A stretch of DNA of 21,675 nucleotides, taken from NCBI GenBank assembly GCA_024741835.1, contig JAENRP010000364.1, positions 1 to 21,675 on the forward strand, in the 5' to 3' direction. Both the position numbers and the translations under genes were made by a program. The notes beneath the pieces were generated by a model. That model made no database searches. It was not told the DNA's origin and saw only the letters and a list, made by a program, of their open reading frames with translations. The stretch is from Diplocarpon mali (Eukaryota > Ascomycota > Leotiomycetes > Helotiales > Drepanopezizaceae). Below, piece after piece: positions 1 to 21,675 of this stretch (the stretch's first letter is position 1; each line of letters opens with the position of its first letter).

Positions 1-740
1 ATTAGATATATTAAGATAATTACTTAATTTTCCTACTATTATAATTAAATTAGTAAAGATATTATCAAATCTCTACTTAAGTAAAAGCTTTGCAAATCTT
101 AGGAACTCCTTATTAAAGCTTTTAAATCTGAATTTTAAAAGTTTAATAAATAATAGATTTATAATACTTTAGCCTTCTTAAAGGAGTTTATTCTTATTAC
201 TTATACTATTAAGGAATTTAAAAACTACTATTAGACCTTTACTTAAGTATTAAATACCTTAATTAATTAGAAGATTCTTAGTAAAGTTGAAAGAGGACGC
301 CTTCTCTTATTTAAATTACTTACTAGCCTTTAAAATAAGATTATTAAAACATTTTAGAATTAATAAGCGTAACTTTATAACCTACGCTTAATTTAAAGAC
401 TTCTTAGCCTTTATATTAAAATCAGATCTTAATAGAAAAGGATAATTAAAGCAATAAAAAAGGAGAAAGAGCCTACTTCCTCCTTTATTAAAGATCTTAA
501 AAGCCTAGTATAAGAATATTCAAAGGCTTTAAAGGTTATTAAAGAAGTAAAAAGAAATCTAATAGTAATTCCCTTTACTTATAGTCTTAGCTTAAGAGTA
601 AAATCTACTTTAAAAATTAAGGAACTTAAAGCTTAGTTTTCTAAACTCTATATCTAATATTTAAAAACCTTAATTAAAGGCCTTCTTTAAGAAACTTATT
701 ATATTCCTTAGTTTAAAGATCAATAGGCTTTAAAGGGTAA
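1..740 (+). pseudogene. gag remnant of gypsy copy A, RIP-degraded
   Basis: This is the capsid-coding part of an LTR retrotransposon, broken by many in-frame TAA/TAG codons. The reading frame is that of the codon starting at base 112. It parallels element B gag at 7966 onward over more than 460 bp with a net difference of one codon. Shared landmarks are the AGGAACTCCTTATTAA-type block (about 100-116 against 7956-7971) and the AAATCAGATCTTA block (419-431 against 8271-8283). A palindrome copy at 577-599 occupies the same site and phase as the copy at 8428 in B. The window starts inside this gag. It is non-coding today; assignment rests on homology to B within the window. Confidence 0.75.
577..599. 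repeat. Palindromic element copy 1 (in gag A)
   Basis: 23-bp imperfect palindrome, RIP-eroded arms ACTTATAGTCT and AGCTTAAGAGT. In the gag A frame it reads TYSLSLRV. Same site as copy 8428 of element B. Confidence 0.8.
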
Positions 741-1013
741 AAACTAATACGCGAATCTTAAATACTTAAATCTAGCTTCCTTTAAATTAAATTAATAAGT
801 TGCTACTTTAAAAAGGTATAATAATTATATATAATTATATTAAAGAAATTCTTAAATCATTAGTTTAATTTTATATAAAGCTTGAATTTTCTTCTTTTTA
901 ATAGGGTCGCCTCTTAAGTTAGTTAGGATATATATGCTCAAGATTACTTAAATTATTTCCGATTTCTTCTTTAAATTACAATTTGATAAGCTTTGCCAAT
1001 TTTCGAGCTTTTA

Positions 1014-1036
1014 ACTTATAGGCCTAGCTTAAGAGT
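1014..1036. repeat. Palindromic element copy 2 (3' region of A)
   Basis: Arms ACTTATAGGCC and AGCTTAAGAGT around a central T. Lies between the end of pol and the LTR; apparently absent at the matching place in B. Would read TYRPSLRV. Confidence 0.8.
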
Positions 1037-1129
1037 CGCGGTACTAAAGAAGGAAAGAAGTTTTATTTAATTGTTTATTACCTTACCTTCCTTTTTTCCT
1101 CCTCCCTTTACTTATTTTTCTGAAAATCT

Positions 1130-1152
1130 ACTTATAGGCCTAACTTATAAGT
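1130..1152. repeat. Palindromic element copy 3 (3' region of A)
   Basis: Arms ACTTATAGGCC and AACTTATAAGT; both arms carry the TAT variant. About 94 bp after copy 2. Confidence 0.8.
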
Positions 1153-1333
1153 TAAAAAAAAACCCCTTTTTCCTCTTTTCTATCTTTACGACTTTAGGTA
1201 TTAACTTTACTTATACTTATTATTTTTATAAATCAGAATTAATATTCTCAATTTATAAAAGGCTTATATTCTTTACTAATAGTAGCAAGAGCTACTACTT
1301 AAGTTAATTAAGGTATATATAAAGACTTAAAAG

Positions 1334-1566
1334 TAGAGGATCTTATAATATAAGTTATATAGTTAGTTAAGGACTAAGGAGGAGGTATATATAAGACTAC
1401 TATTATACTTAAAGATAGCGCGTAATACTAAATACCTATTCTACCCTTAATTAGTAAATTATCCTAGTTCTTATCTTTAAAGAGCCCGCTTATAGTACTT
1501 CCTCCCTTTGTTCTTTGGTCTTTACGTAGGCCTATTTGTATCTTCTCTGCCTTAGTCCTTTATTAG
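1334..1566 (+). repeat. 3' LTR of copy A (matches LTR at 6514-6746)
   Basis: About 233 bp aligns end to end with 6514-6746. The anchor AGAGCCCGCT is identical at 1481-1490 and 6661-6670. The next ten bases differ by exactly three TpG-to-TpA changes (TATAGTACTT here, TGTGGTGCTT there), a textbook RIP signature. The start reads TAGAGG where B has TGGATAGG, so the canonical TG terminus has been converted to TA. The right boundary is set where similarity ends (TATTAG) and is good to a few bases. Confidence 0.65.
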
Positions 1567-2341
1567 CTTGTTTTTTTCGACCCCTTACTTACTCCGTTTT
1601 GCAAATAGAAACTTACCTTCAATTTCAATTTAAAAAAAAAATAAAAATAAAAAATTCCCTATACCCTCGCGTTGCTAGCATAAGCGGCTGCCTAAAGCAG
1701 TATATTAACCTCTCTCTTCCTAACTCTCTTCCTTTCCCTTATAAATACTCTATAACTCCCTTTTTATACTATTCGCTTTTGTCGACTACTTATCGATAAC
1801 TCTCTTTATACTTTTTAAATACTCTCTCTCCCTTTTAAAATACTTAAACCTAACTCGACTATTCGAAAACCCCTTTTTATAAACAAGTCTTTAAAGCTTT
1901 CTTATACTTATCAACCTATACTCGTCGACCTTCCTTATACTCTTCGAAATTCCTTACTCCTCCCTCCCTCTTTATACTTAAGTATAAACTAAAGGACTTA
2001 TATATATATATATAAAGACTTAATTAGCCTTAATAGGTTATATTATACTATTTAAGACTAAGTCAACTTTAGCAAAGTAATAAGCTTTAGACCCTTGGAC
2101 TCTACTTCCTTAGATTTACACTATACCCCTTCTTATATAACCTTATTATAACTTCTAATTAGTAAAGAGACGTAATCCTAAAGTAAAACCTTCTTTCTTA
2201 AGATCTATAAACCTATAATACCTTAATATATACTCTATTAGAAGGCTTTAAGAACGTATATAGCTCTACTTATACTAATCTTCTCCCTTTTAAATAGGTC
2301 ACTATTTGGCATTAGGTCCTTTTAAATTAAATTAAATAAAA
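1567..2341 (+). other. Non-coding, pyrimidine-rich stretch before gag of element C
   Basis: No supported gene. On the + strand this stretch is full of CTCTCTCC, CCTTTTCC and TTTATACT runs (about 1700-1980), then a short TATATATATATATA tract near 2001. This is the composition expected of a fungal promoter or 5' untranslated leader, and it immediately precedes the gag frame of element C, so part of it may be that element's LTR and leader. No second LTR copy was found to prove it. Short ORFs here, such as the 87-codon one at 1536-1799, have no recognisable protein character. Confidence 0.45.
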
Positions 2342-2417
2342 TAGAAAGAGTTAGTACTTAAGACCTTTAATCTTATACTACTTAAGAGGAGTAAAAGGTT
2401 AACTGCACCTCTATCCT

Positions 2418-2465
2418 TAGGCCTTACTGCTATTAGTTCTATAGGCCTTACTGCTACCTTTAGTT
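2418..2465 (+). repeat. Two-copy 24-bp tandem repeat in gag C
   Basis: TAGGCCTTACTGCTA begins at 2418 and again at 2442, giving a 24-bp period. In the gag C N-terminal frame it encodes an eight-residue repeat of the type (S)xGLTAxx. It could be a small in-frame duplication in the disordered Gag N-terminus. Confidence 0.6.
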
Positions 2466-2524
2466 TTAGAGATATTCCCCCTTTTAAGCCTACTTAAGAA
2501 GAAACCTCTTTAAGTATAGATTTT

Positions 2525-2547
2525 ACTCTTAAGTCTAGCTTATAAGT
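2525..2547. repeat. Palindromic element copy 4 (in gag C)
   Basis: Arms ACTCTTAAGTC and AGCTTATAAGT. In the N-terminal gag C frame it reads TLKSSL-stop-V. Confidence 0.75.
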
Positions 2548-4313
2548 AGATTTTTAAAATACCTTATTACTATCGATTGAAGTTAAGGAAGAAGACGCAC
2601 TTTCCTTAATAATATCTACCCTTACTATAATAGCCCCTTTCTTTTTAGCGGCCTAGTAGGCTGAGATTGCGAACCTTATTAGCGCTGCTATAGCCGCTGC
2701 TCTTTAAAACAACGCTGCCGCCCTCTCTTCCTTAAGTGCTAGCCCTTAAAACGCTTAATCCCTTATGGCCGACTTGCTGCCTCCTTTAAACTACTACCTC
2801 TTAATTATCCGACCTTTAATCTTAGCTATTGACCTTTACTAAATCAAGTACCCTTTAAACCATTTTAATAACTATTTAAGCGAAATACCTATAATACTTG
2901 AAAAATAGCTATAAAGGTATTCATTTAAAAGTACTTAAGCAACTTTGCTTTAAAAGAGGATTAGATAATAGCTTACTTTAAGTATATAATAAGTAAAGCT
3001 TAAAACCTAATCTTATAATATATAGATCCTATCTTTGCTAATAATTTTATATATACTACTAATGTCCTTAAGGTCTTAGATTAAAGGTTCTTTAATTATA
3101 ACTATATTTAATCTACTAAGGTTAAATATAATAAGCTAACTATAGGTTTAATATTATATAATAAGTTCCGATCCAAATTCGTTACTCTTATTATAGCTAA
3201 TAAGATCGATTAGACTTGCTAATTTAATAATATGTATAAAAAGGTCTCCTTAGCCTTAAAGAACGACTTTTAAATAGAGAAGTATAAAATGAATAACGAT
3301 TATACTACTTTAGACAAATTCCTAGCTATTGCGGACCGTAAGGCCTGTAATATTAAGTAAGAGAAGGCCTATAACGCTTAATAAGTCTCTTTTGCTATCG
3401 CGTTCTTCCTTTTAAAGGACCGCGTCTTTAGTATATTAAAAAGAGAGTCCTAGAGACCTATAGCTATAGCTACCTCCTTAGCTCCTTATACTTATTCCCC
3501 TTTACTAGCAGCCCCTTAAGAAAGGTCTACTAGCCTAAAGCCGTCCTTTAGTCTTTGCTATAACTGCAAAGCCTTTAGTTATTATATAATAGACTGCCTT
3601 AAGCTAAAGAGATAGGGCGAGTTTATAATAGCTAAAGTTAAGATGGAAAACGACTTACTATTAAAAAACTGCTTAGTTATAATAAAGACTCTAACTATAG
3701 TATAGGTTATAATTTATAAAAAGACTTAGATTTTAATTCCTACCTATTAATAAGTGGCCGCTAATTCTTAATTCTTATAAAACTAGCTTGAAATAGATTA
3801 TTTATTAAAATAGTTACTTATATTAATAGTAGAGCTAATATTTTCGGTATTATTAAGACGTCTTTAGTATATTAGCTCTTTTAAAGACTTAGGGTGAAAT
3901 TTATTAAACTGCTTTAATTAATTACCTTTATTAGCTATAATAGCCTTAAAGGAGAAACCATTCGATTTGCTATCTTACTTACTTTAATAATTGATAGGCG
4001 ATAAATAAACTTCCCTTTTTTAATTATAAGCTTAAGAGCAACCGATATCTTAATTAGTAAGAAGTTCCTAAAGTACTTTAACTTTAAATAGTCTTATAAA
4101 AAGGGAAAGAATTATATCTTTTAGCTTAAGGATATACCTATTATCCTTTACTTCAATTATTATATATTAATAGACCTCTCTTAGCTAATAAAACCCTTAA
4201 TAGCTTAAAAAGACATTAATTATTAAGCAGTTATGATAGACGCTAAGGATAAAGACCTAAGAATGGCCTAAGCCTAGCTTTCTATATTAGTAGGTAAAAA
4301 CGCTTTAAATTCC

Positions 4314-4336
4314 ACTCGCAGGCCTAGCCTATAAAT
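4314..4336. repeat. Palindromic element copy 5 (after protease C)
   Basis: Arms ACTCGCAGGCC and AGCCTATAAAT. In the protease frame it reads TRRPSL-stop-M. Confidence 0.8.
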
Positions 4337-4358
4337 GGCCTTTGCGAACTCGAATTCT

Positions 4359-4381
4359 ATTCTTAAGCCTAGTCTATAAGT
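4359..4381. repeat. Palindromic element copy 6 (after protease C)
   Basis: Arms ATTCTTAAGCC and AGTCTATAAGT. Same phase as copy 5, 45 bp away; reads ILKPSL-stop-V. Confidence 0.75.
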
Positions 4382-6758: not shown

Positions 6759-7689
6759 AGGACCGATTTCTTAAGATTTCCGTCCTTATACGACCTTATT
6801 AATCTCTTGGTTCGCAGATAAGAGACCGGCCTTTTGAAGAATACGTCTTTAAAACACTTATAGCATTTTGATCGACTTTAAAACCCTTATCCTTAATCGC
6901 CTAGTTACTTGGAACTGTCGATTTTCATTTAGCAACTATTAATAACCTTAGATTTTCCCTTTTTAACTCTGCTTTAAAAACCCCTATTTTCTTCCTTAAC
7001 TCTGAGATTTTCGGAATTTTCGGCTTCCTAGTATGAAAAGTTTGGCGAATCCTATAATAGCAATCTTAAACAGCAGTGGTTTCGAGTACTTAAGTAATAC
7101 TAAGTGTAAATTCCAACTGGAAGTGCCTCCTTAGAATCTTTAGAAATCCGAATCTGATAATTCAGCCGCCTCGGCTTAATAGAACTCTAAAAATTGCCTC
7201 GGAATCGTCTTCGGAGACCCCTTTATTCTAAGGACTAATGGGAATTGGCCTAAAGGCTAAGAAGAATCTTGAATATAAACCTTATTTTAGAAATTGGTCC
7301 TTAATTAGGTAAACCTTATCTTATTGCGATTAGTCGCAACGCTCCTATTAGCTGTTTAGCACTTACTTAAAATCTCTTAGCAAACTCGGATTAAACTTTT
7401 AGCAGAATCCGGAATTCTACTCTTAAGCCTAGCCTACGAGTAGGAGGATAAAAAGACGTCCTTAAATAACTTAGGACTGCTACTTACTTTTTTAATATCA
7501 ATATTAGAAAATACTAAAAATAATAATAATTTTGAACTTTTTACTAACCCTTTGTTTGAATCTTTTTAAACTCGTCTTAGTCACTTTGAGATTGACTCGG
7601 ATTTTGAATATTCTTTAAGCCCTTTTGAATTTCGAAGTACTCCTCTTAGCAATCAATCTTATAATATTAAAGCTTCCCCTTTGCCTCTT
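6759..7689 (+). other. Leader of element B; gag start uncertain
   Basis: About 900 bp between LTR and the first ATG of the gag frame. No separate gene is seen. A palindrome copy is at 7419-7441. From about 7441 the gag phase runs on with only RIP-type stops and a protein-like composition, including an Asn run from (AAT)n near 7525-7540. The original gag start may therefore lie upstream of 7690, with its ATG lost. The 80-codon ORF on the - strand at 7705-7947 is a shadow of gag. Confidence 0.5.
7419..7441. repeat. Palindromic element copy 7 (leader of B)
   Basis: Arms ACTCTTAAGCC and AGCCTACGAGT. Upstream of the gag ATG and out of the gag phase. The bases before it (GGAATTCT) resemble those before copy 6 (CGAATTCT). 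Confidence 0.85.
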
Positions 7690-8427
7690 ATGGATTCTAT
7701 TAACTTAGACAGTTAGTATAAAACGATAATGGCCGCATTTAAGGCTATTACTAGTCACTTTCCCCTTCCTAGTTCCCTTGGTGCTCCTCACTTTATAGGC
7801 GCTAATATTACTGATTTCCTTAAGTAATATAAGGAAACTTATTACGATTTTGGTATTGTATAAGAGGATATGATTTCTCAACTTCCTTGCTACTGTGATC
7901 ATATAAGTAAGGATATTATTAAGTCCCTTCCTAAATAGAAAACTCATGGTTTATAAGAACTCCTTATTAAGGCCCTCAAATCTGAATTTTGCGAATTTGA
8001 TAGATAGTAGATTCGCGATACCCTAGCTTTCTTAAAGGAATTTGTTCTGGTCACTTGTACTCTTAAGGAACTTAAGAACTACTATCGGACTTTTACTTGT
8101 ATATTAAACACCTTGATCAGCTAGAAAATACTTAGCGAAGTTAAAAGAGGCCGCCTTTTCTTACTTGGATTACCTACTGGACTTTGAAATAAGATTATTA
8201 AGCATTTTAAGATCGATAAGCAAGACCTTATAACCTTTGCCTTATTTAAGGAATTTGCGGCCTTTGCTTTAAAATCAGATCTTAGTAAGAGAACTATTAA
8301 TACTATAGAATAGGAAAAAGCCCTTACTCCCTCTTATACTAAAGACCTTAAGAGCCTGGTCTAAGAATACTTAAAGGCTTTGGAAGTTATAGAAGAGGTA
8401 AAGAAGAACCTAGTAGTTATACCTTTC

Positions 8428-8450
8428 ACTCGCGAGCCTGACCTAGGAGT
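8428..8450. repeat. Palindromic element copy 8 (in gag B)
   Basis: Arms ACTCGCGAGCC and GACCTAGGAGT, extended to TTTC before and GAAA after. In the gag-pol frame it reads TREPDLGV, between the capsid region and the Cys-rich segment. Confidence 0.85.
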
Positions 8451-9789
8451 GAAATCCAACCTTAGAATTAAGGAACTTAAGACCTAATTTATAGAACTCC
8501 GAATTTAGAGCTTGGAAATTAGGATTAATGATCTCTTATAGGAAAAATAGCATATTCCTCAATTTGGTAATAGGCAAAACTCGGCTACTATAAGCTAATA
8601 TAGTAGTTCCTATTACTAGACTCCTGCTTCTTATCATTCGGAATAACCTACTAATATAAGAACTCAACAGTTGACTAAAGAAGGAGAAATTAATCCTAAC
8701 TAGCACTCTGCTAATATTAATACTATAGGATACTAAGGGAATAGCAATAGAAGACGACTAACCTATAACTTTTATAATAATGAAGAACCTAATTGCGCTT
8801 TATATAAGTATTGTAACGATTGCCCTCTTTTCCTTCGTTTTATTAACACTAGGATTATATATATTAATAAGTATGGGATGCTTTGCATTAGAGATCTTAG
8901 GCTAGAAGCTATCCTTGTTAAAAAGCACCAGAATCGCTTATAGTTATAGACTATTCAAACGATAATATATAGTATAAAATGGGATGAGAATTTGGTCGAA
9001 TAATAGCGTATTATAGATATGAATGCTAAAATTCCAACTTATATATATATAGGTCCAATTAGCAACCTACCTAAGGGAGTTCTTAAGGACCCGGCTTCTG
9101 ACCAAATAGCTATAGAAGTTAGAGGCATCTCTATCTTAAGGTAGGTTAATAATAACGTATCTGCTGATATTAATGCTGCTTTTATATTTAGAAACCCTTA
9201 GAATACTCGACGCCCTTTTAGATCTACCACTCCTTTAATACTAATAAAACTAGCCAAAGTCCAGAAATCAATGCGTGCAACTTAGGAATCTTAATATAGA
9301 GTCCAAACGCTAAAAGATACCTAATAATCTAGAACTGTAGTAGACGAGGATGAAGCCGATATAGCAGACGAATTGATCAAAGATGTAATAGACAAAGATA
9401 GCTCTAAGCTTAAAGATTAAGAAGTTGAAGTTATTACGCGGACCCTTAACCTTAAGTGAAAGAGACAGATATTAAAACAGAAGAAATTTGTTAATAAATA
9501 CGCTAGTTCAACTATAATAGAGAAAGCTATAGAGAATGTCATAGCTTAGCAAATTAACCTTACGTTTAAAGACTTATTTGGTTTGATTAGACGCTTTGAT
9601 AAAGTGCTAAGAAAGCATATCTTAGTTGCCTTTAAAGATTTGAATGATAATAAGGAAATAGAAATTATAATGCAAAAGAACTTTAAGAAGTACTTAGCCT
9701 TAATCAAATGTCTTTAGATTGCAAAAGACAAAGGAACCTAGAGGTACTATAATATTATAGCGATAGCTTTAACATCTTAGAATATCAAT

Positions 9790-10200
9790 CGAAATTGTTT
9801 AGCAGTTGCAATAAAAAGCCTTATTATTATTTATTCTATAGAAGAATTAGTTAAAGCAAAGGCTCTGATCGATTGTGGTTTAGAAGTTAATATAATAATT
9901 AGAAAAGTGGCAGAAATGGCTCGATTGATAATCGTTAGCGATTGACTCCTTATTTATTCGATTGTCTTTAGATCGAAATACAATTTTAATAGATAGGTGA
10001 AAAATGTAAAGGTTAAAGTCAAAGGAATCGTTAATTATACTGACTTTCTAATGATAGAGAATTCCTTAAATAACATTCTTTTAAGAATGCCTTTTATTTT
10101 AGAATCTTAGCTAATATTTAACTATCTTAGAGATAGGCTTATAAAAGCTAGCCTTTAGAATACGGATCGATCCTTAAAAGGACAAATGGTTGTCGCAGGA
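9790..10200 (+). pseudogene. Protease domain of element B
   Basis: Retropepsin region in the gag-pol frame. The catalytic motif reads ALIDCGLEVNII with D-C-G at 9871-9879, where Asp-Ser/Thr-Gly is usual; the change to Cys is not a simple RIP product. About 200 bp on, NNILLRMPFILES (about 10069-10107) matches the family's hydrophobic 'L-L-L-G-x-P-F-L' strand. One further stop codon follows directly at 10108. Confidence 0.65.
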
Positions 10201-10392
10201 GATATAGCCGAATTCTAGAATAAGGTTTTAGGAAACGATTAGCCAGCATGAGGGCTAGGCTTGATGCTAGTGAAGGAAGGCACCTAGCGAGGAGTTATGG
10301 CGAAAGAAAGAAAAAAGAAAAATAAGGTGGAAAAGAGAGTTCGTTTTACAAATTTCGATAATTCACCAATCATTTTGAAAAACCCAAAAACC

Positions 10393-10415
10393 ACTTATAG
10401 GCCGGACCCGCGAGT
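10393..10415. repeat. Palindromic element copy 9 (protease-RT linker)
   Basis: Arms ACTTATAGGCC and GACCCGCGAGT, followed by GAAAA. In frame as TYRPDPRV, between protease and RT. Confidence 0.85.
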
Positions 10416-10899
10416 GAAAAATAATAAAATTACTAATAATATTTCCATTTACGCACTTTAAATTAATAACTTAGAAAATCTTTTATTTGTTTTTAAAAAG
10501 GAAAATTCGGACCATTTTGCAGGATTTGATAAAAAAGGAAAGAAGTAAAGAAGTATAGTACTAGCTAATATTCGAATTATATATAAAAGCAAGGCCGATA
10601 AAGTACAACTAGTGGATTAGGGAATCTCTAATGGCTCGAAGCCTAAAGGACTGGACGATTGGTTTAAATAAGATGAGAAGCTTCGACCTCTAAAGCTAGG
10701 TGGCAAATTCGACAAGTTTATTATAAGCAGATTTTCTAATAAACCTATCGGATATCGGCTAATAAAAGAACGTTTCAATATACTGAAAATTGGAGATGAT
10801 TTAATAGAATAAGAACGCGAACTACTTTATAAAACCTTGATAAATCGAGAGGACGCCTTAGCTTTTGACTAGATAGAACTTGGCCAGATTCAAAAAGAG

Positions 10900-11640
10900 G
10901 TTATACCTTATATTAAGATTAAGATAATACCTTACGAAGCCTGGCAAGAGAAAACATTCGGGGTCCCTAAAGCTCTTTAAGAAAAGGTAATCGAAATGTT
11001 AAAGGATAGGCTAAAGCAAGGTGTTCTTGAGTTCTGTAATAGCCCTTATAGAAACAAATGGTTCCTAGTTGCTAAGAAAGAGAAGGGAACTTACAGACTA
11101 ATAATAGTAGTAGTAGAGATAAACCGAGTAACTGTTAAGGATGCCAACGTTCCTCCGAATATAGATGAGTTCTTAAATGAATTCGCAAGATTAACCCGCA
11201 GCTCTCTTATTAACTTCTTCTCTAAATATAACCAATTCATTCTTAATATTAAATTAAGAGATATAATAGCAATTCAAACCCCTCTTAGGCTACTTCGAAT
11301 AATAAGATTACCTTAAGGGGCTATAAATTCGATCACTCAATTTGTCTAAGTAATCTATAAAATACTAGTAGATTATATACCTAATATTGCGCTCTCTTAT
11401 ATAAACGATATAGGAGTAAAAGGATCAAGATCATTCTATAATTACAAAGAAGTTCTCCCTAGTATACGACGATTTATAATAGAATACATTTAGAACCTGG
11501 ACTAAGTGCTTATACGATTCGAAAGGGCAGGAGTAACGATTAGTCCGAAGTTATAATACTATCTCCTATCGATAGAAATTGTTAGTTTTATTACTAATTC
11601 TAATAGCCGAAGTCCTTAGAGGGCTAAAGTACTCAAAATC
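10900..11640 (+). pseudogene. Reverse transcriptase domain of element B
   Basis: Clear Ty3/gypsy RT fingers and palm: RLKQGVLEFCNSPYRNKWF (from about 11008) and the following DANVPPNIDEF region are strongly family-like. The active site, normally Y/F-x-D-D, reads Y-I-N-D: the first Asp codon is AAC at 11404-11406. That is a GAC-to-AAC change on a CpA/TpG-type target, and it removes a metal-binding carboxylate. Confidence 0.85.
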
Positions 11641-11849
11641 GACAAATGGAAAAGGTGTAATAACGTGGTAGAAGCTCGCGCGTTTATTAGAGTTATAGTA
11701 TACTATCGCATTTAGATTAAGGATTTCGCTAAAAAGGCAGCACCTATTTACTCCTTATTTCGGAAAGGGGCTGAGTTTTAGTAGGAGGAACCTTAAATAG
11801 AGGCTATAAGACAATTGAAGTAAGCGTTGCTTAAAGCGCTATATCTGAT

Positions 11850-12215
11850 TAAAATAGACTATAAAGCCGACGCTAGGCCAATCATACTAACAGTTAACGC
11901 AAGCTTAATCAAATAGGGTGCCGTCCTTTAATAAACTGATAGCTAATAGAAAAGACATCTAGCTCGCTTTGAAAGTGGTCTTTAAAATCTAGTAAAGACA
12001 AAGTATAATACTACTAAACGGGAATGTAGAGGCGCCTTAAAGGCGATAAAAAAGATAAGAAGCGACCTTTATAGTACTTACTTCATCTTTAAAACTGATG
12101 CTAAAGTGCTAATGGAATAATTGAATAGAGCTATAAGCGACCTACTAAGAGCCTTGCTAATGAAATGGATTACTTAGATAAGATTAATAGACTTTGAAGT
12201 CAAATATATTCTAAG
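11850..12215 (+). pseudogene. RNase H domain of element B
   Basis: The opening block reads V-N-A-S-L-I-K-stop-G-A-V-L, where the family has V-D-A-S and G-W-G. The catalytic Asp is Asn (AAC 11896-11898) and the Trp is TAG. KTKYNTTKRECRGALKAIKK (about 11995-12054) matches the central helix with its catalytic Glu retained. The end block around FEVKYILRMKNTAADGLL (about 12195-12248) keeps the late Asp in the 'N-x-x-A-D-x-L' motif. Confidence 0.8.
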
Positions 12216-12359
12216 AATGAAAAATACTGCTGCCGACGGCCTTTTAAAAAGAACTCGTCTCTACCCCTTTAATTTAATTAAAGAAGACGAAATAGATATT
12301 AATAAGTGGGTAGAGAACGAAGTTGGTTATCTATTAATATATCGCCTTAAAGGGACTCG

Positions 12360-12382
12360 ACTTGCGAGCCTGGCCTGCGAGT
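12360..12382. repeat. Palindromic element copy 10 (RNase H-integrase linker)
   Basis: Arms ACTTGCGAGCC and GGCCTGCGAGT, one of the least eroded copies. It is the only copy inside a frame that is in a different phase; the polyprotein frame reads LASLACEL across it. Confidence 0.9.
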
Positions 12383-12559
12383 TGAGTGAGAGAATTTTAT
12401 CACCTAACTACTTAAATGACTTTAAAAAAATCGTAAAATTTTTAATTACGCTTAGACGATTAAAGACAGTTGCTTTTAAAGATTTTTAGAAATTTAAAGC
12501 TAAAGCTCTGATTTATCTAGTGCGAGAAAGACGATTATTTAAAAGGAGCAATAACTCAT

Positions 12560-13300
12560 TCCTTATACGACTCTGCTTAGACGATGAAAAACTAAGGGCT
12601 AAGGCTATCTAGGATATTTATAAAGAAACTGGCCACTAAGGAGCTAAGTCCACCTACCACCGACTCTTAAGGAAATTCTTTTGGAAAGGTTCTTTTAAAG
12701 ACTGTAAAGCCTTTGTGAAAAGTTGCGTCCCTTATTAGAAACGAAAACCTAATTATAAAGAGAATCCCCTATTCCTAACCTAGCTATTAGGCCTTTTCTA
12801 TAAAGTCAGTCTTAATATTATACAAGTACTAATAATCGAAAATGGGATTATATATTTTGTTTTAGCAAAGGAAGACCTATTAGGATGGCCTAAAGGACGA
12901 CCTTTAAGATCTACTAACTCTGAATCTATTGTAAAGTTCCTTTAGGAAGACGTAGTCTATTGCTATAGACTTTTTGGCAGACTAACTATTAATAGAGGCT
13001 TTAAAAATAAAGGAGTAGTTGAAGCTTTTTCGCGAAAATATAGCATTAAACGGGTTCAAATCTTAGCGTATAACTCGAAAGCTAATAGAGTAGTAAAGCG
13101 AGGATATTGCGATATTCTTAATAGGCTATCTAAAGTTATCTATAGAGGATTTAAAAATTAGATAAAACACTTTTATAAAATACTCTTTGCTTATTAAATG
13201 ATAATCTATAAACTAACTAGAGTTATACCATTTTTCCTTATCTATAGCAAAGAGGCATAGCTCCCTTTTAAATCCTGATAGCCTATTTGGAGATTGTTTA
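12560..13300 (+). pseudogene. Integrase domain of element B
   Basis: The N-terminal HHCC region is visible around KETGH (about 12625-12639) and SCVPY (about 12721-12735), where the second Cys has become Tyr. The catalytic DD35E triad is destroyed: first Asp is Asn (12814-12816), second Asp is Asn in RLTINRG (12991-12993), and the Glu is Lys in RVVKRG (13096-13098). All three are G-to-A changes. The spacing of 35 codons between the second Asp and the Glu positions fits gypsy integrases. A C-terminal tail typical of the group (KGTFAANRLKRFY, about 13627-13665) follows. Confidence 0.85.
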
Positions 13301-13794
13301 ATTATAGTCAAATTTAGAACCGTTCCGATTTGCTAGCGATAAGATGCTGATAACTTAAGCTTTAAGATATGGATATAGAGGAAATCATTCTGCGAAAGAA
13401 ACAATATTAGGAAAAAGCTAAGGAAGCGTAGGCTGCTTCCAAAGTACTTAAAACGCACCCTATTTGAAAAGATAATCTTATCCTAATCTATAATATTATA
13501 AGAAGTATTAATATATCCGCAGATACTAAACTTAATTATCGATAGCTTAGTCCATTTAAGGTTAAGTCCAAGTAGGAAGAAAAGGGATACTATTCTCTTT
13601 AGGAACTTGATAAAGTCGATATTAAAGGAACCTTTGCAGCTAACCGACTAAAGCGCTTTTATTAATGCAACTAGACCTTATTCCCCTTAGAAGACGAATC
13701 AGAAATTGATATAACCTCCGAATCTTTTATAAGAACTAACGGCGATATAAGCAATTTTGAACCCTTAGATAAAGACTAAGATTTTTCCAATTTG

Positions 13795-13817
13795 ACCTAT
13801 AAGCCGGTCCTGCGGGT
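13795..13817. repeat. Palindromic element copy 11 (C-terminal tail of pol B)
   Basis: Arms ACCTATAAGCC and GTCCTGCGGGT. In frame as TYKPVLRV, after the integrase domain. Confidence 0.8.
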
Positions 13818-13911
13818 AAAGAATATTAAAATACCTAACTAATTGCGACCTTAAGTTATTATTCTTAAAATATCCGAAGAACGCAAGCGGGAATATTAAA
13901 CGATTTCCTAG

Positions 13912-14212
13912 CCTATTAATTGTCTTACCTTCCTCTAATCCTTATTTTTACATTTTTAATAAGGTCGCCTCCTTTATTATTTAGGATATGGATCTTTTAA
14001 GATCACCTTAAATTCCTGCCTACTCTAACTTATTTTACATTCTTGATATTAGCCTTTAATTATAATATTCCTATTACTTTTCTTAAATAATAAATAAAAA
14101 AGTCCAATTTCCTTAATATATATATAGTAAACCTATTGCAGCTTATATGCCCTTTTAATTCTTATACCCTATTGAACTCTCTTATTTATACTCCCTATCT
14201 TTTATAAGTAAT
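13912..14212 (+). other. 3' end of element B and 5' flank of P1
   Basis: Bases to about 14060 align with the 3' internal region of copy A, including the GGTCGCCTC block. The remaining 150 bp is AT-rich with a TATATATATAT tract near 14119 and a C/T-rich run (ACTCTCTT, ACTCCCTATC) just before the ATG at 14213. It could be a core promoter and leader of P1. No LTR is recognisable. Confidence 0.5.
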
Positions 14213-15058
14213 ATGCCTTTAAAGAACTCACAAATGGTTTTATCTACTGCAATAGGAGATAAATAAGTACTAGTTACAAACTTCTCTTAGGATAGTAGAG
14301 CTATTGCATTATTGGAGAGCTTCAAATCGACCTACGCAGCCTTAGGAGATATAGAGTAATAAAAACTCCTTTTAGCTTATGCGAATGCTATTAGCAACCT
14401 TTCAACCTAGGTGGCCCTTGGAATTCTCTAATTTGACGACTTCCTAATTAAAGAATTGAGACTAAAGGGAATCTTTAAAGAGGAATTCTTAGCTGACGCA
14501 GATCAATATATAACCTTGGCCGACACTTTCAAAACGGACTAAGATAAAAGGGAAGAATCTATTTAACGATTAGATAATTTAGCCACTAATAAGAGAGGAC
14601 TCCTGTTTCATTTACGTTTCCTAATAAATATTAATTCTAATAATAGAAGGCGAATGTTGTTAAAAATTCTTAAGGAAAATACTCTTATAGCTAAAGCTAT
14701 TTAAATTCTCAATTTCTTTATCATTTAAAAAGGAGTAGCAAAATTCCAAGGCAATCGAATTCGCGGTCGCAGATTTGTAGGCCTATCTAATATAGTACTT
14801 ATAGTAGCTGATAGAGCTATAAAAAGATCAAATTGAGCTATAGATATTACCCTACCTAATAGCACTATTATTAATATACTAGGGCTCTGCGCTTCTGCTT
14901 ATAGGTTGCTTATTTTAAGAGAAAACTGGACTCTTATACTAAAGTTTAAACGAGATTTCTTTAATAATAAAGAAGAGAATTGGTTATTTATGGTTAAGCT
15001 TACTTTGAAATTTGCCTCTTAGCCTAAAGATATAATAAGCGCTAAACTATGTAATTTG

Positions 15059-15081
15059 ACTCGCGGTCCTAGACTAGGAGT
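15059..15081. repeat. Palindromic element copy 12 (P1 codon 283)
   Basis: Arms ACTCGCGGTCC and AGACTAGGAGT. In frame as TRGPRLGV; same site as copy 15 in P2, both preceded by NL. Confidence 0.85.
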
Positions 15082-16444
15082 TAGAAACGAGAATTTTAAA
15101 ACTAGACCTAACTTGCCTCTTGCTAAAATGATTCTAGAAACCGCTGCCGAATAGACTGCTTAAACGCTTAGCGTAGCCTCTTTAGAATTTTCAGAATCTT
15201 TAAAGGACTTTCCTTTAGCTAAACGACTAATTTTAGCTCAACCTCTAAGAAGGATAGATCGTTCGATAGCTACCTTAGCTGATTTGCAATTTGAAACTAA
15301 AGGATTATAGGCTCGCTTAGACTCCTTCCTTAACAACTTAAAGGAGCTAGTTCTTAACTTCTTTATATCTATATGCAACCGATTTAGAAACGATAATATA
15401 GGGGAAGACCCTATTCCTCTTACTCTAGAGATAACTAAAAGAGCTATTAGATAAATTCAATAGCTTATCCTAAATGAGTTCGCCCCTACGGATATTGTTT
15501 AATTCTTTAATAATTGCAGAAGTTAAGAACCTAGTCTCTTAAATGCCAAGCGGGACTATTTTATCTTATAAGAAAGAGAACGCAAAGAGGAATCTATTAA
15601 TTAGAACATTTATAATTATAGCAATATGCCTTAATCGGTTATTCTCAACCTCGAACTTAGAGAACAATATAATATTTAGGTATCCTTTGTAATAAAAACT
15701 TGCTTTCAACAGTATCTTCCTAGCGTAGGAATCGAAGGGAGAAGACTTTGCGACCTTTATATTCGCTCTCTTTCGGTTTACTATAGTCTTAATTATAAAG
15801 GATTTGATATTAATAAAACTATTAAATACCTCGAACTTCTTTACGCAGTAGAAGATATCGATCTTTTTCTAATCTACCTTAATAATCAGTTCTTTATCTC
15901 TTTAAGGATATACAAATCTAACCTATTAATAATAGAGGCATCTCTAAGTGCTGTAAAATTCAGGGCTAATCCTAAAGCCTTAAAGGCATTAGAGCCGATT
16001 GAATAGGACAATTCCTTCTTATCTATATTGCTAAATAATAAATAGTAAGAGGAAATAGAAGAAGAAGGGTCAATTGTGATGCCTAAACCCTTTGGATACC
16101 GCTTCTTAATCGACAATTTTACTACTGATAATAGTGCTTTTATAGGTATATTCCTTTCTATTATAAGATAAGAAGCAGAGATGTATCTTTATCACTTTTG
16201 CCCTATGGATAGCGCGACCTTTATACCTTCTTATTTTCTTTATAATATAATGTTCAGTCTTACTTAATAAGTCCTTCGAATGTACTATGGACTCTACCTC
16301 TTAGTTATAATAGTAAGAAGTGGAAGAACCTATTAGCTTATGGCCTACCCTGAACCTCCCTAATTGATTGGCCTTGGTCTTTATAATTAAGTCGTTTTAA
16401 TAAAGAGAGATATAAGTACTACTAATAAAGAAATTCCGATTTTC

Positions 16445-16467
16445 ACTCGCGGTCCTGGCCTATAAGT
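16445..16467. repeat. Palindromic element copy 13 (P1 codon 745)
   Basis: Arms ACTCGCGGTCC and GGCCTATAAGT. In frame as TRGPGL-stop-V; same site as copy 17 in P2. Confidence 0.85.
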
Positions 16468-17329
16468 CAATTTTATTAGAAAGTAAGTCTTAGATTATCA
16501 GATCCTACCGATCGGATAAGGGCTAGCTTTTAAAAGCCTTAATAGGTAGGTCGGCTCTTAGTCGAATATGAAACTTACTCTATCTGCGAAGAAGATAAGT
16601 CGATAGACTTCCTAGGCACTCGATTTAAAATCTCAACTAGCTCAAATGATTATAAAATTGAAGCGAAAGGAGATCTTGCGACCTATTACTAATAATAGCA
16701 ATCCAATTATAGTAATAATAAAATAGGGACACCTTCTTAAAATGCTTTTAGACAATCCTTATAGGATTGGTAGTTTCATGGCCTTTTGCAATAACTATAT
16801 GGCTATTTGCAATAAGAATACCTTGGAAAATGAGATTCGAATCTCCGACCTTGTCTTTTCAGTCTCTACTTTAGAGCAACCTCTAGTACCTCAATAGATT
16901 AATATAAGTAGGACTACTATACCTTTCAAGGCAGCTTTTCATCTTAAGAACTGCGGCAGCCTCTTTAAAGCCATTGTTAGTCGACGCTCTTAAATAGATC
17001 CATCGGTTATAATCAAAGTATAAGAGTTGTTTCTTCTTAATAAAGACGAATTGAAAATCCACCTTATAAAATATAATTAAAAGCTCTTCAATGCCCTTAT
17101 TAAGGCCTAGACAAATGTTATAAATACTAAGTCGCTTCTTTATAGACTTAAGTCTTAGGAATAATGCGATAAAGTAAATGCTATCTAAGAGCCTAATGTA
17201 TTAATTAATAAAGGCATTATTATAAGAAAATTCGGAAAAGAGACAAACCGAGATGCTAGTATAGTATTAGACCCTGATTTGGGAACCAATCCCCTGTTTT
17301 TACCCTTAAGTTTAAAAACGCTAAGACTG

Positions 17330-17352
17330 ACTCGCAAGCCTAGCCCGCGAGT
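17330..17352. repeat. Palindromic element copy 14 (P1 codon 1040)
   Basis: Arms ACTCGCAAGCC and AGCCCGCGAGT. In frame as TRKPSPRV; same site as copy 18 in P2. Confidence 0.85.
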
Positions 17353-17530
17353 AAGGTTGGACTTGGCTGGCTTAAGCCTATAAGAAGGTTCGGATGAACC
17401 TCGGTCACCAAATCTAGGAGTACTAATAGAAGATCCTTTAAGAGAGGTCCTTAAAGCTAAGAAATCGCTAAGAAATGAGAACTAATATAAAAGAAGAAGA
17501 CTCCGAAGTAACAATAGAACTAACAATTGA

Positions 17531-18089
17531 GTCGATTTGATCTAGAGAATTATAGTCTACCCCTCCTTTGAAAACCATTTGGAGAAATTGCGAATTAGAT
17601 ATTGAATTTTTTTAGGATTATCTACTTTCTATATACCTATACCTTTTTGTTCTCTATTTATTATTCTATTCTATATATATTCTTTACTCTACTTTGTTCT
17701 TTATATAATCTACCCTTTGATTATTTCCTTTGTATGCAACTTTCTAACGCTTACCTTTGAAATGTTATCCTTACCTTTGAAGAATTATTATTTACCAATT
17801 GTAGGTCCTTATATGCGTTATACCCCACTTTTGTTCCTACTTCCAAGCTTATTATACCTACTTTTCCTTTGTGCACTAGCGCGATTCCAAACTCTATAAA
17901 TAAGCCTCTCCCTGTATAACGATTTTACCTTTTTACTTTCTCTATAACCCTACTAGACCTATAATACTAGTACTACTACTATTATCTTTCTATTATCAAT
18001 CTTTTCTAGTATAGGCCTCCTATATTGTTAATCTTTTTTAAATAATCATCTTTTCGTTTAAAGCTACCCTTCCTACCGACTAATTTATT
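17531..18089 (+). other. P1-P2 spacer, pyrimidine-rich
   Basis: Non-coding by the evidence available. From about 17620 the + strand is rich in C/T runs with several TATA-like tracts (TATATATATTC near 17671, TTATATAATC near 17701) and ends with a C/T-rich leader before the ATG at 18090. This is consistent with a fungal promoter for P2. The 60-codon ORF at 17717-17899 is hydrophobic only because it translates a pyrimidine-rich strand. Confidence 0.5.
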
Positions 18090-18977
18090 ATGGCACTACT
18101 AAGCTCAAATAAGAAAGCCATACCTAAGAAGAATATGTCAGTTGTTGCCTTAGGCAGCAAGTCAATAAATACTACTAGCAATAAGCTAATATTAGAGGGT
18201 GGCTTTTTATAAGAGGATAAGTTACTAAGATTATTAGAAGATATAGTAAGCACTTATAGAACATTAGGTAAAATAGAATAATAGGTATTCCTAAACTTAT
18301 CTATTAAAGTATTAAACTATAGAATCTCTACAGTTGAAGAAGGATTTTTAAGCTTTGATGATTTTCTTAAGAATAAGCTTAAGACAAAGGGAATCGATTG
18401 TGAAAAATTCTTATAGGAATATTAAGGGTATATTAATTCAATTGATCTATTTCAGAAGAATCGAGATAAGAAAAATAAGTATATGAAAAGGTTATTGCAG
18501 TTTATAAGTAGTACCTATAGTATACTTTTTCAAATACACTTTATAACTGATATCACCGCTAATAACGCCTTGCAGGGGCTTAGCAAAATTTTTAAGATAT
18601 ACTAACTAGTGGCAAAGGCTATATAGGTATTGAATCATTTCACTATTTAAAAGGGTATGAAAAAGCTATAGGGAAATAGTGCGCAAGGTAGAAAATTTGT
18701 AGGTTTCTTAAGTACTATTGTCCACTCCGCCATTTAGACTATAAAGGATAGCCCCTCCTAGTATGATAATATTGCGTTGCTAGACTAAATAGTTCTAGAT
18801 ACCCTCAGTTTGCAATAGTTATAATATGGTTTACTTATTGTAAAGGAAAAGATGATCTATCTAACTAAGTATACTATAAACTACTTTAATAATAAGATAG
18901 AAAGATAGGAGTTTATTATACCTGCTACTTAAAAAATGCTACCACCTTTGGAAGATTCAATTAATAAGCAAAATTTG

Positions 18978-19000
18978 ACTTATAGGCCTGGCCTATGGGT
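18978..19000. repeat. Palindromic element copy 15 (P2 codon 297)
   Basis: Arms ACTTATAGGCC and GGCCTATGGGT. In frame as TYRPGLWV. Confidence 0.85.
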
Positions 19001-19163
19001 AGAAGTACTATGTGAAGAGGATGTCTTTAAGCTGGAGGTACTTATAATACCTGGAACTCAAATAGCTAACTATTGCGATTACTAATCATCAGACTTAAAC
19101 GAGTTTGATTCACTATCTCTAGAGATGCCTTAAACACTTAGAATACTAGTAGTAAAGAAGTTG

Positions 19164-19186
19164 ACTTGTAAGCCTAGCCTACGGGT
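19164..19186. repeat. Palindromic element copy 16 (P2 codon 359, P2 only)
   Basis: Arms ACTTGTAAGCC and AGCCTACGGGT. In frame as TCKPSLRV. No corresponding copy in P1. Confidence 0.85.
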
Positions 19187-20393
19187 TAGAATATATAACA
19201 ATATAGACTCTAAAGATGATCTGACGGACGAAGAGAATAACCCTATTACTAATATAATAGAAATTTTTGATAATATTAAAAAGGATATAGCCGATATTAT
19301 GCAAACCTTTTCCGAAGACTTGTAAAAATTTGTTTTAAAATTCTATAAGTCAATAATAAAGCGTTTGAAAAAGGAAGGTTAAGGAGAAGTTTTACTAGCA
19401 TAAGAAGCGATAGCAAAAGCTATTAAATAAATCATAAAGCTATGATAAGACGAATTTTCTATAGATAATATTATACATTTCTTTATTAAGTATAAGAAAT
19501 CGAAGGGCGACTACTATATCCTTAAAGAAAAGCCAGAAAATAGCATAATAATCATATCTATAGAGTACTATAAAGTTCCCTTTAACATTAAGATAATACT
19601 TTAATATAGCGATAGATTTAAGATTGCAGTAATACTAAAGATGAAGATACAATTGAGCAAATTTATAATAAGGATGTTCAAAGACTTCAGTTTCGAAAAA
19701 TTTTGTACTTTATATAAACGATAATATGTATAATATTATAGGCTGATAATAGTGTCTTTAATTAATAAGCAAGTTTCCTCTAATATATATAAATTTTGCA
19801 CTGCACCTAACCTAAAGTTGTTTTTACTATACCTAGGGAATTATGCAATTATGGCTATTGGCAATAGAATAGCGAGCTAGGTTAAGAAAGATATATTATT
19901 AGGTTTCGCTAAGTTTAAGGTAAAGCCTAAAGCTTTGAAATTATTTTATAATATCGCCTGGACTCCCGCCTAGTATAGTGCTATATTGACTAATGATAAC
20001 CTAATATTACTCTATAGCAAAGGTTTTTTGAATATGCTTAAATTATTTAGCTGCGCTTTTTTAAGTACTGTATATACGTATAGTCACGGTAATTGTAGAA
20101 AGAATTCATTTTTAATAATAGTATAAAAGGAGCTAGAAATGTATTAATACTATTTCCAGACCTCAAACAAAAAGCCAAGCCCCCCCTCTGCCTTCCTTTA
20201 TAATATGACTTATAGCTTAATATAGCAGACCTTGAGGATATACTATAGTCTGTATTTTAGTGCTCTATTAACTTATTATAATTCTTCACATAAGCTAGTG
20301 GCGTATCCTAAGCTTATACAATTTATAGGTATTAACTACCATTTGCGAATTATTTCTACTAAGATTAACGCTAATACAAGATTCGTAAGATTG

Positions 20394-20416
20394 ACTCCTA
20401 GGCCTGGCTCGCGGGT
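20394..20416. repeat. Palindromic element copy 17 (P2 codon 769)
   Basis: Arms ACTCCTAGGCC and GGCTCGCGGGT, flanked by TTG and CAA so the palindrome extends to 29 bp. In frame as TPRPGSRV. Confidence 0.9.
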
Positions 20417-21215
20417 CAATCCACCTAATAATAGAACTATTGACTACTACGTAATTCCAGCAGCCAAACAATCGACCGGAGAATTTATTATATAGGAAAA
20501 GTCTTATAAGTTATTTATACTTATACCCTATCGCCTTAAGAACTCTTAATAGATCTTATTAAATCTGGCATAGAGCGCAGCTTAATAAAAAGAATTAAAC
20601 ACTAAGGATAGAATAATTCTAAAGGAGTATATCTTTAATAAGACTACTCCATTCTTAGTATTTATAAGACAAGGCACCTTTATTAACCTAGATTCTAATA
20701 GAAAACTTAGAAAAGGTGGTTTTCTCGCTATTAGCAATAACTATATAGAAGTTATTAGCAATGAATCACTTGAGAATGGCGCTAATTTAAAAGAATTTAT
20801 TATCGATTTTATCCGTATAAAGAAACCAAGCATAGTAAGATAGAGTATTGCCAAAGAAGCCTTAGCCAAGTTTCGTACAACGCTTGGTATGATAAAAGGT
20901 AGTCTACTATCAGACGCTTTTATAAGAAGACGATTATAGAATGATCTATTGGTAGTAATAACTATAAAGGATTTGTTTGCAAAAGATATGTCTCAGCTGA
21001 TAGTATATCTAAAGAAGTACAAATAAGAACTTTTTAAAGATTTTGCTAGTACCTAGAAGCTGGTTTAATAACTAGAGCTACAGTTGTATAGCAATAAGTC
21101 TTGGATAAAGACTAAGGATATAGATAACAATATCGAAGCTAATAATATGATTAATAAGACAATACTCCTTGAGAAGTATAGCACTAAGAAGCCTTATATA
21201 AAGACACTTGATATA

Positions 21216-21238
21216 ACTCCTAGGCCCGGCCCGCAACT
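21216..21238. repeat. Palindromic element copy 18 (P2 codon 1043)
   Basis: Arms ACTCCTAGGCC and GGCCCGCAACT around a central C. In frame as TPRPGPQL. Confidence 0.85.
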
Positions 21239-21333
21239 TGATCTATCAAAGGGCAAGGCTAAAGAAGTAGTATCTATAGAATCTCCTGCTTCCCCCTCTT
21301 CTATCATCGACAATTCCCTTAAGGATGATGACG

Positions 21334-21350
21334 ATAATAATAATAATAAT
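21334..21350 (+). repeat. (AAT)n microsatellite in P2
   Basis: An uninterrupted run of about six AAT units encoding consecutive Asn after an Asp-rich run (GATGATGACGAT). Confidence 0.8.
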
Positions 21351-21554
21351 GCTATTATATAAGTCTCTCTTCCTATTAGCAGAAGCCGTTATACTATACT
21401 AGCATTCGTAAGGAGTATAGAAGCTCCTGCCATACTGAGACCTGCCTTATCGGATACTAATAGCAATGCTATAAGAAGAAGTGGTCGTTCGGCGAAGAGA
21501 GTATTATCTAGTAATAGTTTTCCCTATCCTTTAAAGAGAACTAAGGAAAACTGA

Positions 21555-21675
21555 CGCTTAGGTTGGTTCTATTTTGATTGTTTTTTTTTTGCGATTCTAT
21601 AGCTTATTTGTTTATTTTGCTGGTTTCTTTTTCTAACTCCTAGGCCCGGCCTATAGGTGAAAAGCATATATATAA
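21555..21675 (+). other. 3' flank of P2
   Basis: A non-coding tail with a T10-type run near 21580-21590, a T-rich stretch, and one palindrome copy at 21636-21658, 81 bp after the P2 stop. No gene is seen before the window ends. Confidence 0.5.
21636..21658. repeat. Palindromic element copy 19 (3' of P2)
   Basis: Arms ACTCCTAGGCC and GGCCTATAGGT around a central C; the left 16 bases are identical to copy 18. Lies outside the P2 frame. Confidence 0.85.

What the first reader, a model, noticed from the sequence alone, without database searches (positions are those of the whole stretch)
577..21658. A dispersed 23-bp palindromic element with 19 copies across unrelated sequences
The same GC-rich imperfect palindrome occurs at 577, 1014, 1130, 2525, 4314, 4359, 7419, 8428, 10393, 12360, 13795, 15059, 16445, 17330, 18978, 19164, 20394, 21216 and 21636. 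Every copy is exactly 23 bp: an arm of the ACTCGCRGGCC type, one central base, an arm of the GGCCYRYRRGT type. Outer bases often extend the symmetry (TTTC/GAAA, TTG/CAA). It is found in gypsy gag and pol of two different families, in a pair of unrelated long frames, and in flanks. Ordinary homology cannot explain this; a mobile or convertible short palindrome can. Nuclear GC-palindromes of this kind in a fungus are not something I can match to a described family; mitochondrial GC clusters and Rickettsia palindromic elements are the nearest analogies.
Basis: partly seen in the sequence, partly recalled or inferred. Interest (0 to 1): 0.92.

Follow-up and report, generated by a model that had tools for sequence, protein, structure and literature searches.

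The report
Mobile 23-bp palindrome in fungal retrotransposons
A tiny, almost perfectly mirror-symmetric 23-letter DNA sequence sits, usually without disturbing the reading frame, at many separate places in the jumping genes of one plant-associated fungus; it looks like a very short mobile element, a kind known from mitochondria and some bacteria but not one that I could find described in a fungal nucleus.

Summary
All 19 sites are where stated; 18 fit one 23-mer, ACTC[S]CGG[K]CC-N-GG[M]CCG[S]GAGT, once C>T/G>A decay is allowed (0 in 40 shuffled windows). The window lies in a 49.4-Mb fungal genome, Diplocarpon-like by protein matches. The undecayed form occurs there 382 times, control 0. Of 40 regions read around undecayed sites, 37 are LTR retroelements (labels partly by eye): linkers between polyprotein domains, leaders, 3' ends. 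Thirteen window copies lie in one giant gypsy element with two extra ORFs. Flanks carry a decayed direct repeat: at 7 bp, 85 of 196 positions agree against 67.4 (7 of 5000 shuffles), one site per homologous position; a 10-bp repeat is as strong (4 of 5000). Either length keeps the frame (30 or 33 bp). No empty site was found inside the genome; homologues elsewhere, mostly unnamed, lack the sites where comparable. The core diverges no slower than its flanks. Best reading: a passenger mobile palindrome spread among retroelements; what moves it is unknown.

The parts
577..599 (.). palindrome copy in a gag fragment of a second, truncated giant-gypsy copy; same site as 8428
1014..1036 (.). palindrome copy just after a stretch (837-988) that matches the end of the giant element's pol region; presumed non-coding
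1130..1152 (.). palindrome copy, presumed non-coding
2525..2547 (.). palindrome copy in the gag N-terminal part of gypsy2; perfect 7-bp flanking direct repeat AGATTTT (2518-2524 and 2548-2554)
4314..4336 (.). palindrome copy, PR-RT linker of gypsy2 (first of a tandem pair, 45-bp step)
4359..4381 (.). palindrome copy, PR-RT linker of gypsy2 (second of the pair)
7419..7441 (.). palindrome copy upstream of gag of the giant gypsy element (5' leader, or another phase if translated); core ungapped in 30 of 30 fetched copies
8428..8450 (.). palindrome copy in gag, reads TREPDLGV; present in 30 of 30 fetched copies (window included)
10393..10415 (.). palindrome copy upstream of the RT region of the giant gypsy element, reads TYRPDPRV
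12360..12382 (.). palindrome copy in the RNase H-integrase linker; the one coding copy read in another phase
13795..13817 (.). weakest palindrome copy (3 non-RIP mismatches), after integrase, reads TYKPVLRV
15059..15081 (.). palindrome copy in ORF-A, position equivalent to 18978 in ORF-B
16445..16467 (.). palindrome copy in ORF-A, position equivalent to 20394 in ORF-B
17330..17352 (.). palindrome copy near the C-terminus of ORF-A, probably equivalent to 21216 in ORF-B (judged by eye; the alignment places it elsewhere)
18978..19000 (.). palindrome copy in ORF-B; intact relatives read TRGPGPRV here
19164..19186 (.). palindrome copy in ORF-B, absent from ORF-A
20394..20416 (.). palindrome copy in ORF-B; intact relatives read TPGPGSRV
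21216..21238 (.). palindrome copy in ORF-B; flanks TGATATA / TGATCTA (6 of 7 identical)
21636..21658 (.). palindrome copy downstream of the ORF-B stop; the contig reads N from 21676
10252..13980 (+). context: decayed gypsy pol (RT_RNaseH, Integrase_H2C2) of the giant element
14195..17527 (+). context: decayed ORF-A, no Pfam family found
18063..21551 (+). context: decayed ORF-B, no Pfam family found; the homologue search returned four proteins, all of Diplocarpon coronariae

Best explanation
It is a mobile, non-autonomous 23-bp insertion sequence, little more than two 11-bp inverted halves around one free base, that was inserted at many separate sites of LTR retroelements (Ty3/gypsy and, by eye, Ty1/copia) of a Diplocarpon-like fungus. 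Insertion at a staggered cut, with some preference for N-R-A-W-T-Y-N, duplicated a few target bases: 7 is my choice, 10 is statistically as good; either adds a whole number of codons (30 or 33 bp). Insertions survived where a Pro/Gly-rich peptide, T-R/P-G-P-G-P-R/G-V, is tolerated: linkers between polyprotein domains, leaders and 3' ends. The retroelements then multiplied with it, RIP decayed it, and at some sites it expanded in tandem. SHOWN: dispersion, near-palindromic core with preferred asymmetry, retroelement setting of the sites read, shared reading phase, tandem changes. SUPPORTED STATISTICALLY: the flanking direct repeat. INFERRED: insertion before the present families multiplied. UNKNOWN: the enzyme. 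My guess is spread during reverse transcription, or an integrase or endonuclease acting in trans, because the copies read lie in retroelements and no longer element with the same ends was found.
For: 382 sites within 2 mismatches, reversed control 0. 40 regions read (42 of the 50 places listed): 37 in LTR retroelements, 3 unclassified (labels partly by eye). One site per homologous position, 28 sites: direct 7-bp identity 85 of 196 against 67.4, 7 of 5000 shuffles; strictest 24 sites 73 of 168 against 58.1, 12 of 5000; inverted relation below expectation. Earlier overlapping sets; sham sites reach the 7-bp value in 0 of 150 sets. 13 of 14 coding window sites in one phase, p=6e-6 (homologous sites taken once, about 9 of 10, own reckoning). 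One 45-bp unit more or less: L009/L012 against L010/L014. Relatives lack the sites where comparable. Core not more conserved than flanks in 30 gag copies. Half-sites: 52 of 69 look like decayed full copies, the other 17 against 12 control hits.
Against: No clean empty site in this genome at any site tested. The repeat is weak per site: 7 of 7 only at 2525, whose undecayed relative L121 matches 4 of 7; it falls to 53 of 2000 under one grouping. Length 10 is as strong in every set where it was tried and is unexplained; in the finest grouping other lengths rise too (z up to 3.0). Linkers of relatives are too variable for a clean absence test. 23 bp is very short for a transposase that must pair two ends (recalled). 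The parent search covers undecayed half-sites only.
Confidence: 0.55

Rival explanations
1. An RNA element of the retroelement genomic RNA: the hairpins act in packaging, dimerisation or template switching and are kept by selection in several retroelement families.
For: Folds as a 10-bp hairpin with a 3-base loop, -19 kcal/mol, z -5.2 in perfect form and -15.4 with the usual mismatch; the sites read lie in LTR retroelements; many copies along one element of at least 14 kb.
Against: The commonest arm arrangement carries a mismatch at pair 5/19 (23 of 29) and pair 9/15 does not co-vary clearly; the core diverges at least as fast as its flanks in 30 gag copies; homologous elements lack it where comparable.
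Confidence: 0.13
2. A conserved peptide, for example a flexible or protease-cut linker, selected as protein; DNA symmetry is a by-product.
For: 13 of 14 coding window sites in one phase; positions at domain junctions; peptide preserved in intact D. coronariae proteins.
Against: Also in presumed non-coding places (1014, 1130, 21636, copia-like 3' end); phase exception at 12360; relatives' linkers have unrelated sequence.
Confidence: 0.11
3. Spread by slippage, tandem duplication and unequal exchange or RT template switching between retroelements from one ancestral palindrome, without a true insertion reaction.
For: Arrays with steps of 45, 48, 54, 61, 66 and 72 bp; paralogues that differ by exactly one 45-bp unit; confinement to retroelements among the sites read.
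Against: Most sites have unrelated flanks outside the core (34 classes at the middle grouping; 28 by hand), so copying would have to carry only the core; short direct repeats are not expected.
Confidence: 0.18
4. A repeated binding site for a host or element-encoded DNA-binding protein.
For: Near dyad symmetry and dispersion.
Against: Preferred asymmetry, divergence of the core as fast as its flanks, coding positions in one phase.
Confidence: 0.03

Closest known systems
Mobile palindromic GC clusters of yeast mitochondria (GC42; PMC4478555, passages read)
   Same: Very short GC-rich palindromes, many copies, non-autonomous, merging and shuffling of units, mover undecided.
   Different: Mitochondrial; 42 nt with an AG target doublet and absence sites with a single target; stems under constraint. 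Here nuclear, 23 bp, in retroelement coding linkers, a 7- or 10-bp repeat, no clean empty site found, core not constrained.
Rickettsia palindromic elements (recalled; no paper on them read)
   Same: Palindromic insertions in frame in unrelated protein genes.
   Different: Recalled as about 100-150 bp and bacterial; here 23 bp, eukaryotic, seen in retroelements.
PARCELs (PMC2996958, abstract and outline read)
   Same: Coding repeats with dyad symmetry in tandem arrays, in some taxa tied to mobile elements, thought to be mobilised within genomes.
   Different: A 25-residue amphipathic domain in bacteria and eukaryotic microbes; this is an 8-residue Pro/Gly-rich peptide.
MITEs (recalled)
   Same: Inverted repeats with a target duplication, non-autonomous.
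   Different: Far shorter, no internal sequence, no parent element found among undecayed half-sites.

Membership tests
Mitochondrial GC clusters | GC-rich palindrome, dispersed in AT-rich DNA | tested here: met
Mitochondrial GC clusters | resides in a mitochondrial genome | tested here: not met
   49.4-Mb assembly, hits on many contigs, beside decayed LTR retroelements
Mitochondrial GC clusters | absence sites with a single target | tested here: not met
   none found in this genome at the sites tested
Rickettsia palindromic elements | in-frame insertion in unrelated protein genes (recalled) | tested here: met
   gag, PR-RT, integrase end, ORF-A, ORF-B in one phase, RH-IN in another; all within retroelements
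Rickettsia palindromic elements | sequence relation to RPE families | not tested
   only exact undecayed 23-mers were sought in prokaryote genomes: 0
PARCEL | 25-residue amphipathic repeat motif | tested here: not met
   peptide is 8 residues, T[RP]GPGP[RG]V; definition from the abstract
MITE | terminal inverted repeats | tested here: met
   two 11-bp halves
MITE | fixed-length target site duplication | tested here: inconclusive
   7 bp: 7 of 5000 shuffles; 10 bp: 4 of 5000
MITE | autonomous parent with the same ends | tested here: inconclusive
   52 of 69 half-site hits end in TA or CA as decayed full copies would; 17 others against 12 control hits, their surroundings not read; decayed parents not excluded

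The most novel reading that the evidence does not exclude
The smallest known nuclear mobile element: a 23-bp near-palindrome that moves with a short target duplication of the right length (7, perhaps 10), so that every insertion is a whole number of codons and gene-safe, and that lives as a hyperparasite inside LTR retrotransposons, perhaps copied by their own reverse transcription.
Probability: 0.32. Interest if true: 0.9.

Novelty: new variant of a known kind. Interest (0 to 1): 0.72.

Why it matters
If true, short mobile palindromes are not limited to organelles and endosymbiotic bacteria, and a selfish sequence can be small enough and rightly sized to add a harmless short linker wherever it lands in a gene. 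It would be a natural case of in-frame sequence gain in polyprotein linkers, and would make the old question of how GC clusters and palindromic coding elements move testable in a nuclear genome with hundreds of copies and several related host species.

Tried and rejected
Rejected: chance (0 in 40 controls); presence of the exact undecayed 23-mer in prokaryotes or catalogued viruses (0 matches in each collection); extension of the palindrome into the flanks; a longer parent with the same ends (undecayed only, surroundings not read). A search for copies with GC-rich flanks, meant to find host genes, gave 12 places, all with the flank of one giant-gypsy site. Empty sites: flank comparison among fetched loci gave tandem-step differences, slipped T-runs and small indels, no gap of zero. 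LTRs of the giant element could not be delimited: in the window contig and in C253 the sequence after the last palindrome reads N, and in C223 and C507 the contig ends there. Literature: searches listed nothing that I recognised as a nuclear fungal element of this kind (listings only, open-licence papers); the main texts of PMC5628827 and PMC11527701 have 0 occurrences of the stem 'palindrom'. P0017 and P0046 carry TREP-type peptides that align with ordinary linker sequence and are not counted as copies; P0004 (833) and P0006 (905), each 6 of 8 residues, are undecided. P0018 and P0025 could not be used at the PR-RT site because residues seem spliced out of their gene models. Rows dropped before counts: 5 of 29 classes (two poor matches, L019:1761 and L058:1438, the latter in host-like DNA; three of the same families); L058:1438 again.
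Full report
WHAT WAS CHECKED. All 19 coordinates hold a 23-mer. The window is AT-rich, has no ORF of 150 aa or more in the standard code, and its frames are broken mostly by TAA and TAG, as expected from repeat-induced point mutation (RIP; established knowledge). Allowing C>T and G>A, 18 of 19 sites fit ACTC[S]CGG[K]CC-N-GG[M]CCG[S]GAGT with at most one other change; 13795 has three. At that threshold the scan finds no other site in the window, 0 in 40 order-2 controls and 1 in the reversed window. An earlier, narrower consensus recovered 13 of the 19, and 0 in 20 controls.

THE GENOME. The window is C364:1-21675 of a 49.4-Mb assembly of 676 contigs. A decayed gypsy pol found beside one palindrome matches Diplocarpon coronariae proteins at 88%, so the source is a Diplocarpon-like fungus; I did not identify the species. 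The undecayed 23-mer with up to 2 mismatches occurs at 382 places, reversed-pattern control 0. Exact matches in the viral contig collection and in the prokaryote genome collection: 0 and 0. Twenty 3-kb stretches at positions fixed beforehand gave 1 good site, in an AT-rich stretch, and none in the 17 stretches with GC 0.43 or more; the loose control gives 0 to 2 in the same length, so only the absence of many copies is informative. A later scan flagged one poor match in host-like L058, which I take as chance.

WHERE THE COPIES SIT. One search lists 50 places; I fetched 40 regions that cover 42 of them. 37 regions lie in LTR-retroelement sequence: 19 in one copia-like 3' end after the RNase H reading frame, 5 in copia-like gag-protease, 1 in a copia integrase-RT linker, 1 in another copia-like 3' end, 4 in gypsy2 linkers, 7 in the giant gypsy element; three (L094, L103, L104) are unclassified. 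Pfam supports gypsy for the pol frames and a retroviral SH3 domain, just below its cut-off, for L101; the other copia labels are by eye. Thirteen of the window copies, 7419 to 21636, belong to one giant gypsy-like element: gag and ORF-B hits lie 12.37-12.49 kb apart on the same strand in 17 pairs from two lists of 40 hits each.

READING FRAME. In coding places the core is read ACT-CGC-GGG-CCN-GGC-CCG-CGA-GT or its reverse, peptide T[R/P]GPGP[R/G]V. 13 of 14 coding window sites are in this phase (12360 is not), p=6e-6 against one third; the host frames were set by me and from relatives. Homologous sites (ORF-A/ORF-B, tandem pair) are not independent; counted once I get about 9 of 10 (own reckoning). 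Of four intact D. coronariae relatives of ORF-B, three keep the peptide at the same four places and P0045 at three, its third region being absent from the protein model.

INSERTION SIGNATURE. Flanks of distinct sites were compared with shuffled partners. First sets: 84 of 168 identical at 7 bp against 62.8, 0 of 1000 (24 of 29 classes used); 80 of 161, 0 of 2000 (23 of 24 classes); without the three best sites 62 of 140 against 49.3, 22 of 5000. After 20 new loci one grouping weakens it to 53 of 2000; average-linkage groupings give z 3.9, 3.7 and 2.9. A 37-site set gave 118 of 259 against 96.1, 1 of 5000, but it held duplicates. The test that I rely on has one site per homologous position: 28 sites, 85 of 196 against 67.4, 7 of 5000; with ORF-A/ORF-B homologues and a tandem copy dropped, 24 sites, 73 of 168 against 58.1, 12 of 5000; the inverted relation is below expectation, 62 against 72.6. 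Sham sites reach the 7-bp z in 0 of 150 sets. Against this, 10 bp is as strong in every set where it was tried (4 of 5000 in the strict set; sham 0 of 150), and in the finest grouping other lengths rise as well. Both 23+7 and 23+10 are whole codons. The best cases are 2525 (7 of 7) and 21216 (6 of 7). The seven bases tend to N-R-A-W-T-Y-N.

EMPTY SITES. Inside the genome none was found. gag 8428: 30 of 30 fetched copies filled, the window's own included. Site 2525: 40 copies scored of 173 candidates, the window included; 39 align over query and subject spans of equal length, one (C68) is 15 bases shorter, so a clean 30-bp absence is not seen (letters not read). Pairwise flank comparison of fetched loci: 2054 with gap 23, the others tandem steps, T-run slippage and small indels. 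Predicted empty-site patterns: one search gave 119 hits against 86 control, and the printed ones are nearly all filled right flanks or background; one search gave 2 against 7 control. Outside: eight relatives of the giant pol (32-48% identity, sources unnamed) show no such peptide at the pol sites where they align (10393 is not covered by P0048 and P0051), and none of the 39 proteins of that search holds it at 6 of 8 residues. P0004, P0005, P0013, P0017 (unnamed) and P0015 (Drepanopeziza brunnea) lack the gypsy2 PR-RT array. These linkers are variable, so this is absence, not a clean empty site.

TANDEM STEPS. gypsy2 RNase H-integrase linker: two copies in L009, L012 and D. coronariae, one in L010 and L014, difference exactly 45 bp, three in L093. 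Other arrays step by 45, 48, 54, 61, 66 or 72 bp; most are multiples of three.

CONSTRAINT. In 30 gag copies pairwise transversions in the core are 0.0161 against 0.0000 in 200 flanking bases (8428) and 0.0456 against 0.0339 (7419); transitions are also higher. So the core is not conserved beyond its surroundings after insertion; its CpG content may add RIP. Of 29 undecayed representatives 23 have G in one arm and C in the other at position 5, 5 have G in both, 1 is decayed there (not all independent): copies mostly descend from an asymmetric sequence rather than arising each as a perfect palindrome. The RNA folds at -19 kcal/mol in perfect form and -15.4 with the usual mismatch.

MECHANISM. 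I take it as a passenger insertion sequence. Shown: dispersion, context of the sites read, phase, asymmetry, steps. Supported statistically: a flanking direct duplication, 7 or 10 bp. Inferred: insertion before the present families multiplied. Open: the enzyme.

KNOWN KINDS. Nearest in behaviour are yeast mitochondrial GC clusters, with AG target doublets, merging and shuffling (passages of PMC4478555); the in-frame habit resembles Rickettsia palindromic elements (recalled); PARCELs are coding repeats with dyad symmetry (abstract of PMC2996958). It fails at least one tested feature of GC clusters and of PARCELs, so I file it under none of them. My searches listed no nuclear fungal case that I recognised; only open-licence papers were searched.

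Noticed in passing
window 7419-21658 and further: A giant gypsy-like retroelement (at least 14 kb) with two extra, distantly paralogous ORFs of about 1100 aa (ORF-A, ORF-B) after pol; no Pfam family above cut-off; the homologue search returned 4 proteins, all D. coronariae.
   Followed up: partly
flanks of the distinct sites: Direct flank identity also deviates at length 10 (spacing 33), spread over all positions; unexplained.
   Followed up: partly
L101, L110-L120: A copia-like integrase-RT linker holds a variable array of palindromes with Asp/Ser/Asn-rich spacers, differing between copies.
   Followed up: partly
C253:39299, C223:72450, C507:23005, window end: The assembly reads N or ends just after the last palindrome of the giant element in four copies, perhaps at the LTR.
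   Followed up: no
L094, L103, L104: An unclassified repeat; L094 and L103 hold two palindromes 123 and 129 bp apart.
   Followed up: no
P0004 residue 833; P0006 residue 905; P0017 residue 241: Peptides like a decayed copy in gypsy proteins of unnamed source; DNA not available.
   Followed up: partly
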